Below, in pieces: positions 500 through 6,336 of a stretch of DNA of 6,388 bases. The position numbers and the translations under genes were made by a program. Positions within the stretch are counted from its first letter, which is position 1, and each line of letters begins with the position of its first letter. The notes under the pieces were generated by a model. It was not told where the DNA came from and did no database searches. It saw only the letters and a list, made by a program, of their open reading frames with translations. This DNA is from Pseudomonadota bacterium (GTDB lineage: Bacteria; Pseudomonadota; Gammaproteobacteria; Pseudomonadales; UBA5518). The stretch is from assembly GCA_022705125.1 (NCBI GenBank), contig JAKJFB010000173.1:1-6388 (forward strand). Direction: 5' to 3'.

Positions 500-612
500 G
501 TCGGCATGACTGCCGACTCACACACCCCGTAGGTCGCCATTGATGGCGACAGCAGCATTGGACATGGCACCTGTCCGCATGAATGCGGACCCACGGAAGC
601 CGAACCCACGGG
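500..612. repeat. REP (GTAG hairpin) cluster between rpsT and dgkA
   Basis: Three hairpin units and one half unit fill the gap between the convergent ends of rpsT and dgkA. Unit 1 (500-517) is inverted, arms GTCGGCA / TGCCGAC, loop TGAC. Unit 2 (529-550) is direct: GTAG, arm GTCGCCAT, loop TG, arm ATGGCGAC. Unit 3 (573-594) is inverted: arm GTCCGCAT, loop GA, arm ATGCGGAC, then CCAC (GTGG on the other strand). A right-half unit, GAAGCCGAACCCACGG, follows at 597-612 and ends one base before the dgkA stop. This placement fits known REP/BIME elements. I see no protein-coding gene here. Confidence 0.85.
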
Positions 613-1006: not shown

Positions 1007-2721
1007 TTATCCTAGGGTGACGGTGTCGCGGCCCGAGCGCAGGATCCTGCCGCCCGGCGTACCCGTGTAGGCGCCGTGGCGCACGATCTCGCGTCCGTTC
1101 ACGATCACGTGCGCGACACCCAGCGCTTCCGCGTACAGGCGGCCCACGCCGCCGGGCAGGTCGAAGCGCGTGTGCGTCGGACCGCTTGCGATGGTGTCGG
1201 CGTCGAACACCACCACGTCGGCGCAGAAGCCCTCGCCAGCCGGCCGCGATCACCGAGCCCGACCATGCGCGCCGGCACCTCGGTGAGCTGGTGCACGGCC
1301 TGCTCCAGGCTGATCAGGCCGCGCTTGCGCACGCCGTGCTCGAGTACCTGCGTCGAGAAGGCGAAGGTGTCGATCATGTCCAGGTGCGCGCCGGCATCGG
1401 AGGCGCCGATCACGGTGCGCGGGTCGGTCCAGACCTCGCCGCGCAGGCGCCAGGATTCGTCGTCGTCGCCGAATATCGGCGGCACGAAGGAGGTGCGCAG
1501 GTCCTCGGACAGCGAGAGATCGAGCAGTGCGTCCAACGGCGTCTTGCCCTGCGCGGCGGCGAGCTCGCCGACCGTCTTGCCCTGCCATGCCTTGTTGGCC
1601 GCGACGAAAACCTCGTCGATGGTCCACGAAAGCCAGTTCGCCAGCGCCGCGAACACCCCGGCCTCGGGTGAGCGGGCGCCCGCTTCGAGCCTGGCGCGCA
1701 CCGCGGGATCGGCGAACGCCGCCTTGCGCTCGGGCAGCGGCTTGCCGATCACCTCGGCCCAGCCCGGCAGCGCGTCGAAGATGAAGCCGCTGACCAGGTT
1801 CAGGCGGATCGTCATCGGCTGCGGCAGCGTGAGCGCCACCACGGTGGCGCCGCGCGCGGCCGCGTGGTCGCTGGCGGCGAGCTGGGCCTTGTGCATGTCG
1901 GGCATCAGGGAGCTGGGGTTCAGCAGGTTCCAGTTGACGGTGCGCTCGCCGGCGAGCGCGAACTTCGTCATGCGCTCCTTCTCGTCGTCGCTGAAGCTGC
2001 CCACGCCCGGCAGCAGTTCCAGCAACGTGCCGGGAAATTCCTTGACCACGCTGGCGAGCGCGAACAACTCCTCGTCGGTGGCGTGGCGCGAGGGCACCGG
2101 CTTGCCGTCGCCGTCGTTGTGGGTCTGCGACACGGTGCTCGAGAAACCCAGCCCGCCGGCGGCGATCGATTCGCGCAGCAGTTCCTGCATGGCGGCGATC
2201 TCGGCCCCGGTGGCGTGGCTGCCGACCGCGCGCGCGCCCATCACGTGGCGGCGCAACGCGGAGTGCCCGACCATGAAGCCGGCGTTGATCGCGAGCTTCC
2301 CGTCGAGCGCGTCGAGGTACTCGCCGAAGCTGCGCCAGTTCCACGGCACGCCCTCGCGCAGGCTCTCCAGTGGCATGCCCTCGACGCGCGCCAGCATGCG
2401 CATCAGGTACTCGCTGTCCTCGGGCTTGCCGTTGAGCGGCGCGATGCTGAAGCCGCAGTTGCCCGCGATCACGGTGGTCACGCCGTGATAGCACGAGGGG
2501 CTCAGCGTGCGGTCCCAGAAAGCCTGCGCGTCGTAATGCGTGTGCACGTCGACGAAGCCCGGCGCGACCGTGAGGCCCGTGGCGTCGATTTCCTCGCGCG
2601 CCGCCTCCGTCACGGTGCCGATCGCGGCGATGCGTCCGCCGCGGATGCCTACGTCGGCGAGGCGCGCGGGCGCTCCGCTGCCGTCGATGACGCTGCCGCC
2701 CCTGATGATCATGTCCAGCAT
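1007..2721 (-). CDS. N-acyl-D-amino-acid deacylase / D-aminoacylase family amidohydrolase, frameshifted
   Basis: This cytoplasmic metal-dependent amidohydrolase belongs to the D-aminoacylase family, which releases D-amino acids from N-acyl-D-amino acids; the exact substrate here is unknown. The N-terminal beta-sandwich (RGGSVIDGSGAPARLADVGI) leads into a TIM barrel with metal ligands H60 and H62 (HTHYDAQ) and the family cysteine C89 (GNCGFSIAP). The catalytic aspartate is probably D442 in SDAGAHLD. The frame holds through GLGDRGRLA (residue 496). The family sequence then resumes one frame over as EGFCADVVVFDADT and runs to TAA at 1007, so one base is missing near 1234-1237. Read uninterrupted, the first frame ends at 1105 with 42 nonsense residues. 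Restored length is about 571 residues, normal for the longer members. ATG 2721 has GGAGA 9 nt upstream. The break may be a sequencing error or a real inactivation. It is divergent from the TetR gene. Confidence 0.88.
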
Positions 2722-2893: not shown

Positions 2894-3511
2894 ATGAAAA
2901 CAACGGCCGAGCGCGTGCTCGACGTGGCAGAAGACCTGTTCGCGGAGAAGGGCTACCAGGCGGCATCGCTCGGCGACGTGGCGGAGCGCGTCGGCATCCG
3001 TTCGCCCAGCCTGTACAACCACTTCCGCAACAAGGAGGCGCTCTATCACGCGGTGCTCGCGCGGCTGCTGGAGAAGTTCAACGCACCGCTGCGCGAGCTG
3101 CAGGAGGGCGCGATCACGCCCGAGCGCATTCGCGGCTGGCAGGCGCGGCTGGTGCGCATGCACATCGATAACCCCAACCTCGCGCGTCTGCTGCAGCACG
3201 AGGCGCTCTCCGGAGGCCCCGGTTCGGAGCTGATCATCGAGCAGCTGTTCAAGCCGCTGATCGAGAGCAGCTCGAGCGCGATGGATCCCGGTGTCGCGCA
3301 GAGCCCCAGCGCCTCGCGCCTGCGCCCGTGGATCGTGATGGGCTTCAACAATATCGTGATGTCCTACGTCACCATGGCGCCGCTGTACCGCGGACTCCTG
3401 GGCATCGACCCGCTGGGCGCCGAGGCCGCGGAACGGCAGGTCGAATTCATCACGCGGCTGACCGATGCATTCTGGATGAGCGGACTGGGCAAGGAAATCT
3501 GGAGACCATGA
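2894..3511 (+). CDS. TetR/AcrR-family transcriptional regulator
   Basis: This 205-residue protein has the TetR architecture: an N-terminal DNA-binding domain (about residues 5-51) and a helical ligand/dimerisation domain. The helix-turn-helix is SLGDVAERVGIRSPSLYNHF at 25-44, followed by the typical RNKEALYHAVL. The C-terminal half (LARLLQHEALSGG, PWIVMGFNNIVMSYVTMAPLYRG) is of the type common in uncharacterised TetR regulators, and its ligand cannot be predicted. The start ATG has GAGG at 2883-2886, 7 nt upstream. The stop TGA overlaps the ATG of the phosphatase gene (ATGA), so the two are translationally coupled. By family habit it probably represses its own operon, and possibly the divergent deacylase gene; this is inferred from position only. 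Confidence 0.93.
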   Translation: MKTTAERVLDVAEDLFAEKGYQAASLGDVAERVGIRSPSLYNHFRNKEALYHAVLARLLEKFNAPLRELQEGAITPERIRGWQARLVRMHIDNPNLARLLQHEALSGGPGSELIIEQLFKPLIESSSSAMDPGVAQSPSASRLRPWIVMGFNNIVMSYVTMAPLYRGLLGIDPLGAEAAERQVEFITRLTDAFWMSGLGKEIWRP

Positions 3512-4512
3512 GCAAGGCATTTCCGATACACGTGGAGCAGACTCCCGAGGGCGACTACCTCCTGAGCTGGACCGAGGAGTTCAGCGACGCGGGCGTGGAA
3601 GTCCGCGCCCACGCCGCGCCCGATGCGGCGCCCGGGGCCGAGCCGGTGGCGCGCGCGGCGCGTCGCGGCGTGCGCATCTCGGGGCTCGAGGGGCCGCGGC
3701 ATTATTTCCACCTGCAGCCCGAGCAGGGCGAGGGCGTCACCGCCGCGCAACGCAACGTGCCGCTGCAAGCCGGCACCAATTTCCGCGACATGGGCGGCTA
3801 CCGCGGCGCCGATGGCCGGCGCGTGCGCTGGGGCCGGCTGTTCCGCTCCGGGCACACGGCGGCCCTGAGCGAGCGCGACCGGGAAGTCGTGGCGGCGCTG
3901 GACATCCGTGTCTGCTGCGATTTCCGCCGCGAAGACGAGCACGTGATCGAGCCGACGCGGCTGCCGCCCTCGACGCGCATCGTGGGGCTCACCGTCGATC
4001 CGGGCAGCACCAGCTCGTTCTTCCAGCAGGTCGCCGAGCGCGGCGCCGGACCCGCCGACATGGCGGCGTTCATGGAAGAGATCAACCGCGAGTTCGTGCG
4101 CCACCACGCGCCGCAGTTCCGCCGCATGCTGGGCGAGCTGCTGGCGCTGGAGGACGGCGGCTTCATGATCAACTGCGCCGCCGGCAAGGACCGCACCGGT
4201 TTCGGCGCGGCGATGATCCTGGCGGCGCTGGGTGTGGCCGAGGACGATATCGTGGCCGATTACCTGCTGTCGGGCCGCTATTTCCCGATCGACCGCGAGA
4301 TGGACCGCGTGCTGCGCAAGTACGGCGGCGAGGCCGGCGGGCGCCTCGATCCGCAGCTGATCCGCCCGATGATGGAGACGCGCCGCGAGTACATCGAAGC
4401 CGCGCTGGAGGCGATCCGGCGCGACTACGGCTCGCTGGAGCGTTTCCTCGACGAGGCGATGGGCGTGGGCCCCGCGGAGCGGCGCGAGCTGCGCGAGCGC
4501 TTTACCGCGTAG
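3508..4512 (+). CDS. tyrosine-protein / lipid phosphatase, MptpB-like (Y_phosphatase3 family)
   Basis: This 334-residue protein is a cysteine-dependent phosphatase of the family that includes mycobacterial PtpB, whose members remove phosphate from phosphotyrosine, phosphoserine/threonine or phosphoinositides. The N-terminal 85 or so residues look like a small beta domain. The family motifs follow: NFRDMGGY at 91-98, RWGRLFRSG ending at 115, and the P-loop CAAGKDRTG at 223-231, with C223 as nucleophile and R229 as phosphate-binding arginine. The residue before the cysteine is N222 instead of the usual histidine. No signal peptide is visible, so it is probably cytoplasmic. The ATG overlaps the TetR stop, with GGAGA 3-7 nt upstream, so I chose it over a longer open frame from 3328. 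The TAG stop lies within a REP unit. The true substrate is unknown. Confidence 0.9.
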   Translation: MSKAFPIHVEQTPEGDYLLSWTEEFSDAGVEVRAHAAPDAAPGAEPVARAARRGVRISGLEGPRHYFHLQPEQGEGVTAAQRNVPLQAGTNFRDMGGYRGADGRRVRWGRLFRSGHTAALSERDREVVAALDIRVCCDFRREDEHVIEPTRLPPSTRIVGLTVDPGSTSSFFQQVAERGAGPADMAAFMEEINREFVRHHAPQFRRMLGELLALEDGGFMINCAAGKDRTGFGAAMILAALGVAEDDIVADYLLSGRYFPIDREMDRVLRKYGGEAGGRLDPQLIRPMMETRREYIEAALEAIRRDYGSLERFLDEAMGVGPAERRELRERFTA

Positions 4513-4592
4513 GTCGCCATTCATGGCGACAACAACCCCGTAGGTCGCCATTCATGGCGACAACAACCCCGTAGGTCGCCATTCATGGCGAC
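4509..4592 (+). repeat. tandem REP array, three 22-bp GTAG hairpins at 31-bp period
   Basis: Three identical direct units start at 4509, 4540 and 4571. Each is GTAG, arm GTCGCCAT, loop TC, arm ATGGCGAC. The 9-nt spacers are both AACAACCCC, so the tandem period is exactly 31 bp. The TAG of the first GTAG is the stop codon of the phosphatase gene. The head motif and perfect stem match REP sequences recognised by RAYT (TnpA-REP) transposases. Confidence 0.93.
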
Positions 4593-4599
4593 TGGGATT

Positions 4600-4980
4600 T
4601 CATCGGGGCTGCTGTCGGCATGAATGCCGCCCCCTATCGCGAATGCCGTTCCACGGCGTGATGATGCCGATCACGCCGAGCGGGCGGTACACGATGCGCA
4701 GCTGCTTCGCGATGCCCATCAGGCCGTGCACGCGCTCCTTGCGCGTCCTGAGGAGCTTCCGCGCGTTCTTCGCGTAGTCGCACAGCGAATCCGCGGCGGC
4801 GAAGATCTCCATGCTCATCGCGTCCGAGCGCGCCTTGCCGGTTTCGCGCACCACGGTGTCGACGATCTCGTCCTGCCGCGCCAGCAGCACCTTCAGCGCG
4901 CGGTTCATGTATTCGGCGCGCTCGGCGAAGCTCTTCGCGGCCCAGCCGGGCTGCGCGGCGCGTGCGCGGCAGCAATTTAC
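4600..4980 (-). pseudogene. aldehyde dehydrogenase remnant (N-terminal fragment)
   Basis: About 110 codons of an NAD(P)+-dependent aldehyde dehydrogenase survive. In the minus frame, ARAAQPGWAAKSFAERAEY precedes an internal ATG at 4908. Then come the helix VVRETGKARSDAMSMEIF, the segment KQLRIVYRPLGVIGIITP and WNG, the end of the TPWN motif at the cofactor site. Homology stops at about 4645, where non-homologous codons run through a REP unit to TGA at 4600. The family enzyme has roughly 480 residues, so the catalytic glutamate and cysteine regions and most of the fold are missing. On the other side an in-frame stop (4987-4989) precedes any start, so the first 40-60 residues are also missing. 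A 102-residue product from ATG 4908 could be called by gene finders but cannot be an active dehydrogenase. The original substrate cannot be deduced. Confidence 0.85.
4614..4631 (-). repeat. inverted REP unit at the edge of the aldehyde dehydrogenase remnant
   Basis: Arm GTCGGCAT, loop GA and arm ATGCCGCC form a REP hairpin with one mismatch in the inverted orientation. Read on the minus strand, the head before it is ATAG instead of GTAG. It lies 14 bp beyond the point where recognisable aldehyde dehydrogenase coding sequence stops. Confidence 0.7.
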
Positions 4981-5020
4981 GGAGAATTAACGCACTCGCG
5001 CGACGCGCGGAAATTGCCGG

Positions 5021-5272
5021 TCAGGCTTGCCCGCGACCGTTGCGGCGCCTGGCGAGGGCGGCGGCCTTGCCCGCCGGCGCCGGGCCGCGCTCCTCGCCGT
5101 CGGCGCGCGTCGATCCGCCCGTGACAGTCTGTTGCGGGTTGGGATAGGGGTAGAAGGCGGCGATGTGCTGCGCGAAGGGCGCGGCGTTCGTTGGCGCCGC
5201 ATGGGCACGCCGGCGCCGCGGCGCTTCGGGCGTAGCGCCGGCGTCGATTGCGGTCGTCAATGCATCGGACAT
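5021..5272 (-). CDS. small hypothetical protein
   Basis: This 83-residue ORF (87 if started at ATG 5284) is not a family I recognise. It begins MSDALTTAIDAG, continues with a basic stretch EAPRRRRAHAA, a more ordered-looking middle AAPFAQHIAAFYPYPNPQQ (about residues 32-50), and a disordered, Gly/Ala/Arg-rich basic C-terminus. It has no signal peptide or membrane helix. Codon third positions are strongly G/C, like the neighbouring genes, which favours real coding. A plausible promoter lies just upstream (5301-5328), giving a very short leader without a ribosome binding site; leaderless or weak initiation is possible. The open frame continues upstream into REP sequence as far as 5425, which I consider non-coding. 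It could instead be a degraded gene. Confidence 0.45.
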   Translation of the reverse strand: MSDALTTAIDAGATPEAPRRRRAHAAPTNAAPFAQHIAAFYPYPNPQQTVTGGSTRADGEERGPAPAGKAAALARRRNGRGQA

Positions 5273-5300
5273 GAGTGGCTGCATCGTTTGGTGTGGCAGC

Positions 5301-5328
5301 AGTATATGCGGACGGACATTACCGGCAA
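5301..5328 (-). promoter_or_regulatory. candidate sigma-70 promoter of the small ORF
   Basis: On the minus strand, TTGCCG (5328 to 5323) and TATACT (5306 to 5301) are 16 nt apart. The -10 matches five of six consensus bases and the -35 four of six. Transcription would start near 5294, 9-22 nt before the two candidate ATGs. The -10 overlaps the last base of a lone REP arm, GTCCGCAT (minus strand, 5313 to 5306). Confidence 0.45.
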
Positions 5329-5336
5329 AACACGCT

Positions 5337-5425
5337 GTCCGGATCAATCCGGACCCACGTGGGTCCGCATTTATGCGGACGAGTGCGACGGCAAAAAAAC
5401 CTTGTCCGGATGAATCCGGACCCAC
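5337..5425. repeat. REP cluster downstream of pcm (BIME-like)
   Basis: Three hairpin units alternate in orientation. The first, inverted (5337-5358), has arms GTCCGGAT / ATCCGGAC, loop CA, then CCAC. The second, direct (5359-5380), has head GTGG, arms GTCCGCAT / ATGCGGAC, loop TT. The third, inverted (5404-5425), has arms GTCCGGAT / ATCCGGAC, loop GA, then CCAC. The first two abut head to head, so their heads form the palindrome GGACCCACGTGGGTCC. Alternating inverted pairs are the hallmark of bacterial interspersed mosaic elements. The cluster begins 11 bp after the pcm stop. Confidence 0.88.
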
Positions 5426-5432
5426 GCCGTCG
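5386..5432 (-). terminator. probable pcm terminator built from a REP unit
   Basis: On the minus strand, directly after pcm, the REP stem GTCCGGAT / ATCCGGAC is followed by AAGG and then seven T residues (5399 to 5393). A second 7-bp inverted repeat, CGACGGC (5386-5392) with GCCGTCG (5426-5432), encloses both the hairpin and the T run. The four bases between stem and T run make it slightly off the classical intrinsic pattern. Confidence 0.55.
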
Positions 5433-5435
5433 ATC

Positions 5436-6089
5436 TCAATGTTTTCCCGTCAACGGCACGAAGCGCACCGGGATCACGTGGCGCGTGCGGAAACTCTTCT
5501 CGCCGGTGCGTTCGATCACATCGAGATTCTGCCAGCCGGCCTCGTCCTCGACCGGCAGCACCAGCTTGCCGCCGATGCGTAGCTGCTGCTTCAGCGGCTC
5601 AGGCACGCCCGCGCCCGCGGCCGTGACCACGATGCCGTCGAAGGGCGCGTGCTCCGGCCAGCCGTGCCAGCCGTCGCCGGCTTTCACGGTGACGTTGGCG
5701 TAACCGAGCTCGCGCAGCACGTCGGCGGCCCGGCGCGCGAGCGCGGGCACGATCTCGATGCCGTACACCTCGCTCACCAGCTCGGCCAGTATCGCGGCCT
5801 GGTAACCGGAGCCGCTGCCCACCTCGAGCACGCGGTGCCCGGGCTGCGGGTCGATCAGTTCGGTCATCAGCGCCACGATGTACGGCTGCGAGATGGTCTG
5901 CCCGTGCCCGATCGGCAGCGGCGAGTCGCTGAAGGCAAAACGCTCCTCGCCCGGGGGCACGAAGCGCGCGCGCGGCACCTTGCGCAGCGCCGCGATGAGG
6001 CGCGGCGACAACTCGTCGCGGCCGATTTCCGCCGCCGTATCGCGCACGTGCTGCTCGATGGTGCGGACCATGTCTTCCTGCATCTGCAT
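5436..6089 (-). CDS. pcm: protein-L-isoaspartate O-methyltransferase
   Basis: This 217-residue cytoplasmic repair enzyme transfers a methyl group from S-adenosylmethionine to L-isoaspartyl residues that form as proteins age, starting their return to normal aspartate. Family motifs are clear: RARFVPPGEERFAFSDSP at 40-57, PLPIGHGQTISQP at 57-69, SAM motif I VLEVGSGSGYQAA at 87-99, GIEI at 110-113, and GDGWHGWPEHAPFDGIVVTAA near 140-160. Length is normal for the family. The open frame reaches 6188, but the extra 33 residues are translated REP sequence; ATG 6089 has GGAGG 8 nt upstream and matches family length. pcm often sits with surE, nlpD and rpoS in gammaproteobacteria; here it stands alone between two REP clusters, with a divergent gene upstream. 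Confidence 0.96.
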   Translation of the reverse strand: MQMQEDMVRTIEQHVRDTAAEIGRDELSPRLIAALRKVPRARFVPPGEERFAFSDSPLPIGHGQTISQPYIVALMTELIDPQPGHRVLEVGSGSGYQAAILAELVSEVYGIEIVPALARRAADVLRELGYANVTVKAGDGWHGWPEHAPFDGIVVTAAGAGVPEPLKQQLRIGGKLVLPVEDEAGWQNLDVIERTGEKSFRTRHVIPVRFVPLTGKH

Positions 6090-6097
6090 CGCGACAT

Positions 6098-6102
6098 CCT
6101 CC
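6098..6102 (-). promoter_or_regulatory. ribosome binding site that fixes the pcm start
   Basis: GGAGG on the minus strand lies 8 nt before ATG 6089. It rules out the longer open frame beginning at 6188, whose first codons are REP repeats with no binding site. Confidence 0.85.
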
Positions 6103-6114
6103 GGGAGAATCCCC

Positions 6115-6224
6115 GTAGGTCCGCATTCATGCGGACGATTACCCCGTAGGTCCGCATTCATGCGGACGATTACCCCGTAGGTCCGCATTCATGCGGACAT
6201 TTGTCCGGCTGAAGCCGGACCCAC
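6115..6224. repeat. REP array upstream of pcm: three direct units at 31-bp period plus one inverted unit
   Basis: Direct units start at 6115, 6146 and 6177. Each is GTAG, arm GTCCGCAT, loop TC, arm ATGCGGAC. The 9-nt spacers are both GATTACCCC, so the period is again 31 bp. A fourth, inverted unit (6203-6224) has arms GTCCGGCT / AGCCGGAC, loop GA, then CCAC. The array lies 12 bp from the pcm ribosome binding site, in the region shared by the divergent pcm and right-edge genes. Beyond it, 6225-6312 shows nothing beyond weak promoter-like matches. Confidence 0.93.
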
Positions 6225-6289
6225 GGCAGGCAGACTGCCCCCGGCCATCGCCAGCCGCATTGATCTGGTGCAATGAAGCGGCGCGAATC

Positions 6290-6317
6290 CTGCCGATGCG
6301 CATCGCTGTAGTATGCT
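6290..6317 (+). promoter_or_regulatory. weak candidate promoter of the right-edge gene
   Basis: CTGCCG (6290-6295) and TATGCT (6312-6317) are 16 nt apart. Matches to consensus are only three and four of six, so this is a suggestion based mainly on position; transcription would start near 6324. Confidence 0.25.
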
Positions 6318-6336
6318 TCGGGCAGTAACACGCAGG

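What the first reader, a model, noticed from the sequence alone, without database searches (positions are those of the whole stretch)
4509..6198. Two three-unit arrays with the same 31-bp period but paired changes in the stem
Array A (4509-4592) has arms GTCGCCAT / ATGGCGAC; array B (6115-6198) has GTCCGCAT / ATGCGGAC. The two differ by a GC-to-CG swap in one arm matched by the complementary swap in the other, so pairing is kept while sequence changes. Both have exactly three units, 9-nt spacers ending ACCCC, and the same loop. Within each array the spacers are identical, implying recent local amplification of each subtype. The stem may encode recognition specificity, as if different transposase or protein partners read different arms. 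Other units carry further paired variants (GTCCGGAT, GTCCGGCT, GTCGGCAT).
Basis: partly seen in the sequence, partly recalled or inferred. Interest (0 to 1): 0.7.

Follow-up and report, generated by a model that had tools for sequence, protein, structure and literature searches.

The report
Tandem mobile hairpin repeats between genes
The two three-copy arrays are new members of a known class of small bacterial DNA hairpins (REP elements); their stems do change in matched pairs, but the evidence points to a two-armed element whose arms differ rather than to a code read by different enzymes.

Summary
Arrays A (4509-4592) and B (6115-6198) each hold three GTAG-headed hairpins, period 31, whose stems differ by paired swaps. 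They belong to the known GTAG superfamily of REP elements. The window's genome is not held, but relatives are: G323 is syntenic (S20 96%, PCM 80% identical) and G458 has 264 matches. A stem subtype thus marks an arm. Three units is not special (runs of 1-7). No RAYT flanked by this class was found, and one RAYT in the family is flanked by two stem types, so 'different enzymes read different arms' is not supported. Array A's head is its neighbour gene's stop codon; in G323 that stop carries another REP class in the same layout. Paired subtypes, tandem arrays, stop-codon use and class replacement are all published. New member of a known kind.

The parts
4509..4592 (+). Array A: three GTAG-headed REP units, stem GTCGCCAT/ATGGCGAC, period 31, spacers AACAACCCC
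4510..4512 (+). TAG of the first GTAG head of array A = stop codon of the tyrosine phosphatase gene (3508-4512)
4614..4631 (-). Decayed inverted partner of array A, stem GTCGGCA (outer pair and head mutated)
   Evidence: by eye
6115..6198 (+). Array B: three GTAG-headed REP units, stem GTCCGCAT/ATGCGGAC, period 31, spacers GATTACCCC
6203..6224 (-). Inverted partner of array B, GTGG head, stem GTCCGGCT
529..550 (+). GTAG-headed REP, stem GTCGCCAT, left arm of an inverted pair with a 22-bp inner gap
573..594 (-). GTGG-headed REP, stem GTCCGCAT, right arm of the same pair
500..521 (-). REP unit with GTGA head, stem GTCGGCA
5337..5358 (-). GTGG-headed REP, stem GTCCGGAT, abutting the next unit head to head (gap 0)
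5359..5380 (+). GTGG-headed REP, stem GTCCGCAT, left arm of an inverted pair (inner gap 23)
5404..5425 (-). GTGG-headed REP, stem GTCCGGAT, right arm of that pair; followed by a T run, terminator-like just after pcm

Best explanation
The arrays are GTAG-superfamily REP elements built as REPIN/BIME-like units: a GTAG- or GTGG-headed hairpin on one strand and an inverted hairpin with a different stem on the other. Shown here: paired stems, unequal arms, and head-to-tail multiplication of one arm together with its adjoining spacer. Inferred: the elements spread, or once spread, through a RAYT transposase acting on folded single-stranded DNA, which needs head, loop and an intact helix but tolerates base-pair swaps in the stem. 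Stem subtypes would then arise as paired changes, spread as copies, and stay unequal between the two arms, perhaps because equal arms are lost more readily (a published suggestion, PMC3733652). Arrays A and B are two such elements whose left arm was triplicated.
For: Head, loop and stem layout. On 38 distinct units 98.5% of cells pair, 0 of 500 shuffles as high; three of seven pairs covary and four never vary. With the inner three pairs left free in the choice of units, 11/11 (window), 144/153 (G458) and 8/8 (G323) are fully paired; reversed-sequence control 0. Unequal arms: 72 of 73 inverted pairs within 100 bp in G323; in G458, of 44, 27 are GTCGCC/GTCGGC, 7 GTCAGC/GTCCGA, 8 other unequal, 2 equal; all four in the window, two of them found by eye. 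Tandem neighbours share the stem in 57 of 59 (G323) and 30 of 41 (G458) cases. Of arrays of three or more units, 7 of 9 in G458 and 8 of 11 in G323 have an inverted partner within 110 bp. G458 L087 9757-9884 has the window's layout: three units, period 31, then an inverted partner. G458 has 264 pattern matches against 0 for the reversed pattern.
Against: No RAYT flanked by this class was found: the Y1 transposase genes seen in G458 and G323 are not flanked by it. G458's gene starts 413 bases from a contig end, completeness of these drafts is not told, and the window's genome is not held. 11 of 41 tandem neighbours in G458 differ in stem; 9 of 153 G458 units have an unpaired inner position. Folded as single-stranded DNA, neighbouring same-stem units of arrays A and B also pair with each other, and the unequal pair at 5355-5430 still folds as one long hairpin, so unequal arms do not plainly prevent joint folding. 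3 of 20 long arrays... more exactly 5 of 20 (2 of 9 and 3 of 11) show no inverted partner.
Confidence: 0.8

Rival explanations
1. One reading: each stem subtype is a recognition code read by its own RAYT or other protein.
For: Species with several GTAG families have family-specific REPtrons (PMC3733652, section 16 read), and orthologous RAYTs can be flanked by different REPs (PMC3686654, sections 6 and 8 read). Subtypes mostly keep to one stem within an array.
Against: Different subtypes form the two arms of one element. In G412 one RAYT is flanked by two stem types with one head and loop. G458 has seven paired inner-stem types, one a singleton, but only one gene at the RAYT model's cut-off (80.4 bits against 80; 78.7 as an ORF). 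In vitro, stem base swaps had smaller effects than loop changes or mismatches (PMC8266576).
Confidence: 0.12
2. The hairpins are kept mainly as RNA or DNA signals for neighbouring genes (terminator, mRNA end protection, protein-binding site), and pairing is selected by that role.
For: Array A begins at the phosphatase stop codon; in G323, 66 of 94 testable GTAG heads are in frame as the upstream ORF's stop. The unit at 5404-5421 ends in a T run behind pcm.
Against: Only 2 of the window's 14 units score as terminator-like, and the scan's total of 3 is no more than the shuffle mean of 3.5. Array B lies upstream of pcm (start 6095) with the next gene, read by eye, on the + strand, so it is not at a gene end. 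No Rfam family reaches its threshold.
Confidence: 0.15
3. The paired changes are chance differences between two unrelated palindromes.
For: None beyond short length.
Against: Thirteen hairpins against 0.34 in shuffles; same loop, head and period; the same class in hundreds of copies in G458.
Confidence: 0.01

Closest known systems
GTAG-superfamily REP elements (Di Nocera et al. 2013, PMC3733652; sections 5, 14, 15, 16 and first part of 17 read)
   Same: GTAG or GTGG head, short stem and loop, subfamilies with complementary stem residues, inverted dimers often with unequal stems, clusters, TAG of the head used as stop codon.
   Different: The figure with the 24 consensus sequences is not held, so whether this class is one of them was not tested. 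[quoted passage not shown]
REPINs / BIMEs (Bertels and Rainey 2011, PMC3116915; passages seen)
   Same: Two inverted REPs as the unit; tandem clusters that include flanking DNA.
   Different: Here one arm alone is often multiplied, and the cognate RAYT was not found.
SMAG repeats of Stenotrophomonas maltophilia (PMC2613905; passages seen)
   Same: GTAG-headed palindromes; monomers or dimers repeated in tandem with flanking DNA; unit number varying by strain; one locus where an element of another GTAG family replaced a SMAG dimer.
   Different: Different stem and loop; different hosts.

Membership tests
GTAG-superfamily REP | Conserved GTAG (or GTGG) tetranucleotide next to a short palindrome | tested here: met
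   Of 14 window units 7 are headed GTAG, 5 GTGG, 1 GTGA and 1 is decayed
GTAG-superfamily REP | Many copies in the genome, mostly between genes | tested here: inconclusive
   Window genome not held. Relative G458: 264 matches. No window unit lies inside the Pfam-matched part of a gene.
GTAG-superfamily REP | Alternative complementary stem residues within a family | tested here: met
GTAG-superfamily REP | A RAYT gene flanked by the same REP class | tested here: inconclusive
   Not found in the G458 and G323 drafts; window genome not held. RAYTs flanked by another REP class are present in G412, G385 and G282.
REPIN / BIME | Two inverted REPs at short distance as a common unit | tested here: met
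   Window inner gaps 22, 21, 23 and 4 (for array A the script's 19 used a start two bases early); G458 30 of 44 inverted pairs at 22 bp
REPIN / BIME | Excision or copying as a doublet by RAYT | not testable with these tools
   needs strains or population sequencing

The most novel reading that the evidence does not exclude
REP sites in this family are lasting addresses whose occupant class is rewritten in place: at the phosphatase stop codon the window has ATTCAT-loop units and G323 has TGT/CGT-loop units in the same layout (three or two GTAG-headed direct units, period 31, then an inverted partner with another stem), while three other relatives have a TGA stop without a REP. A RAYT that prefers an existing REP, or its stop-codon junction, as target could swap whole classes in situ.
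Probability: 0.12. Interest if true: 0.6.

Novelty: new member of a known kind. Interest (0 to 1): 0.3.

Why it matters
It adds a REP class from a family with few held genomes. It gives a clear case in which stem variation follows the arm of a two-armed element rather than separate enzymes, which makes the unexplained preference for unequal arms testable. The array A stop codon, without a REP in three relatives and filled by different REP classes in two genomes, is a natural place to ask whether REP classes replace each other in place.

Tried and rejected
Phosphatase scan of genome contigs: no relative. Exact tandem pattern in viral contigs and genome contigs: 0 matches. Plasmid searches gave only protein matches under 60% identity and weak DNA matches of E 0.1 or more, many in Pantoea, not followed. 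Class-wide search for this REP: 1 of 369 genomes, one copy. I first took the Y1 transposase beside gltB (gltB named from recalled likeness, not from a call) for the cognate RAYT; the Y1 loci L065-L068 of four relatives carry a perfect inverted repeat around GGGGTCAGA and similar motifs lie near the genes of G323 and G458, as in the TIRYT genes of PMC3733652, so I dropped that reading. In-place class replacement as the main reading: rejected, because at 6 of 7 shared gene ends the REPs of G458 and G323 lie at different distances from the stop; the seventh is the same class in both. A helical-phase meaning of 31 bp: rejected, since spacings from 30 to 93 occur. Coordinates 4612-4629 for the decayed partner in my scripts' lists and notes are two bases early; the printed sequence gives 4614-4631. 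Literature: searches and an exact-string search for one unit (0 papers) in the held library only. PMC3733652: outline, sections 5, 14, 15, 16, first part of 17, and passages. PMC8266576: outline, sections 3, 17, 20, first part of 23. PMC3686654: outline, sections 6 and 8. PMC2613905 and PMC3116915: passages. Others: listings only.
Full report
Observation. The window's + strand holds 13 GTC...GAC hairpins with seven intact pairs, against a mean of 0.34 and a maximum of 3 in 200 shuffles counted with one mismatch allowed. A decayed fourteenth unit lies at 4614-4631 (sequence).

Where the window belongs. No genome is held for it. From an E. coli handle, S20 was searched in 274 class genomes (best identity 75%, G008), and the pattern GTRGGTCSSCATTNATGSSGAC in 293 genomes drawn from G008's order: 3 of 293 match, G458 with 264, G323 with 5, G444 with 1; the reversed pattern gives 0. 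G458's family has 6 held genomes, 2 of them with matches. The window's phosphatase finds G323 at 70%, G436 and G412 at 60%, G282 at 58%, and the rest of the 88 matching genomes (of 293) at 48% or less; G458 has no phosphatase match and G385, also of the family, is not among the 88. G323 is syntenic: S20 96%, DAGK 75%, phosphatase 70%, aldehyde dehydrogenase fragment 83%, PCM 80%. In a class-wide draw the REP is nearly absent: 1 of 369 genomes, one copy (this draw overlaps that).

Do stems covary? I selected units by head, outer stem GTC/GAC and loop, leaving the three inner pairs free. All three are paired in 11 of 11 units in the window, 144 of 153 in 439,665 bases of G458 and 8 of 8 in 1,273,799 bases of G323; reversed sequence gives 0. 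Over 171 units (slightly narrower loop pattern) the inner pairs are intact in 165, 169 and 170, against shuffle means of 96.9, 100.5 and 140.4. On the 38 distinct units (A1) 98.5% of cells pair (shuffle mean 82.4, 0 of 500 as high), with 31 double-change cells against 8.6; three of seven pairs covary, four never vary and say nothing. The number of pairs with a change on both sides, 3, is not above its shuffles (402 of 500 reach it). Cells count sequences, not events: the subtypes have spread as copies.

What the subtypes mean. In G458 the common unit is an inverted pair with a 22-bp inner gap whose arms differ: GTCGGC with GTCGCC, or GTCCGA with GTCAGC. Of 44 inverted pairs within 100 bp, 27 and 7 are these, 8 are other unequal pairs and 2 are equal. 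In G323, with another class (stems GTCCGGGC and GTTCGGCC, loop mostly TGT or TGC), 72 of 73 are unequal. The window has four, all unequal, with inner gaps 22, 21, 23 and 4; two are counted by the script, the partners of arrays A and B were added by eye. The pair at 529-594 has G458's 22-bp gap and similar spacer ends. So a stem subtype marks an arm of an element. Unequal arms and the lack of an obvious reason for them are published (PMC3733652, section 14).

Folding. As single-stranded DNA, arrays A and B fold better than shuffles (z -7.55 and -6.03), with the first two units paired to each other; the unequal pair at 5355-5430 folds as one long hairpin (z -5.20), that at 525-598 weakly (z -2.76). 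Unequal arms thus do not plainly stop joint folding.

Arrays. Head-to-tail neighbours share a stem in 57 of 59 cases (G323) and 30 of 41 (G458); spacings peak at 31-33 in G323 and at 44 in G458; same-strand runs are 1:107, 2:13, 3:4, 4:4, 7:1 in G458 and 1:143, 2:24, 3:4, 4:3, 5:3 in G323. Three units is not special. Consecutive spacers inside arrays are 89% (n=17) and 78% (n=20) identical, against 34% and 24% between arrays; 7 of 9 and 8 of 11 arrays of three or more have an inverted partner within 110 bp. G458 L087 9757-9884 repeats the window's layout. Tandem REP arrays varying in number by strain are published for S. maltophilia (PMC2613905).

Transposases. The Pfam Y1 model finds one or two genes in each of the 6 family genomes; the NCBI RAYT model scores 126-127 bits in G412, G385 and G282, 87.6 in G436, 80.4 in G458 and 71.2 in G323 (cut-off 80; as ORFs 78.7 and 70.3). 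The genes of G458 and G323 lie beside the same neighbour, which looks like gltB (recalled), and are not flanked by this REP class; G458's upstream flank is cut by a contig end after 413 bases. G323's gene has a tandem cluster of its own GTTCGGCC units about 110 bases upstream, so a REPtron of that class is not excluded. The three strong RAYTs are flanked by a GTAGGA-headed class; in G412 both GCGGGC and GCGCGC stems flank the one gene. This, and published assays (PMC8266576), speak against one enzyme per stem.

The array A site. In the window the phosphatase ends GCG TAG, where TAG lies in the head of array A. In G323 the same gene ends GCG TAG with two direct units of another class 31 bp apart and an inverted partner; in G412, G282 and G436 it ends GCC TGA and no REP is seen in the printed stretch (only 62 bases for G436). 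In G323 the head's TAG is in the longest upstream open frame in 66 of 94 GTAG first-of-array units with an open stretch of at least 100 codons (18 and 10 in the other frames; 13 of 107 without such a stretch; p 3.5e-13 against one third); for 33 units with other heads the frames are 7, 9 and 10, 7 without. REP stop codons are published (PMC3733652, section 15). Because such junctions are frequent, two independent insertions at one stop are plausible; in orthologue pairs some REP stops sit exactly at the relative's stop and others codons away. Across G458 and G323, of 58 gene ends 50 are testable: 7 have REPs in both, 6 only in G458, 6 only in G323, 31 in neither (Fisher p 0.023; 0.047 without the one same-class pair). 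This is weak: some intergenic regions count twice, and gap length and operon structure are not controlled. By intergenic region the counts are 4, 3, 1 and 26 of 34. At 6 of the 7 shared ends the distances from the stop differ, which argues against rewriting in place. Array B has no counterpart in G323.

Verdict. A new member of the known GTAG REP kind. The paired-stem observation is right, the enzyme-code interpretation is not supported, and class turnover at a shared stop codon is the most interesting open point.

Noticed in passing
window 4512-4908: The aldehyde dehydrogenase gene is cut down to a fragment: 133 bp separate its matched part from the phosphatase stop, against 1282 bp in G323, with array A and its partner at the junction, as if a deletion ended in the REP cluster.
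   Followed up: partly
window 1007-2721: The amidohydrolase frame matches three relatives over residues 1-495 of 538 and its end seems to continue in another frame (by eye); a frameshift or an assembly error is possible.
   Followed up: no
L083 (G458) 6547-6682: Tandem array of period 57 whose spacer contains a GTAGGA-GCGGGC-CAT hairpin like the class seen in G412, so two REP classes seem to have been amplified together.
   Followed up: no
L078 414-1202 (G458) and L070 1165-1866 (G323): A Y1 transposase gene near the RAYT model cut-off sits beside the same neighbour gene in both genomes.
   Followed up: partly
window 5404-5421, - strand: One REP behind pcm is followed by a T run and looks like an intrinsic terminator.
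   Followed up: no
window 6096-6332: Array B lies upstream of pcm and, by eye, before a gene on the + strand, that is between divergent starts, unlike most REPs; the region is short and REP-free in G323.
   Followed up: partly
plasmid records H26-H30, H38-H40: Several Pantoea plasmids hold short matches to the array A region at E 0.1 or more, perhaps another palindromic repeat of similar sequence.
   Followed up: no
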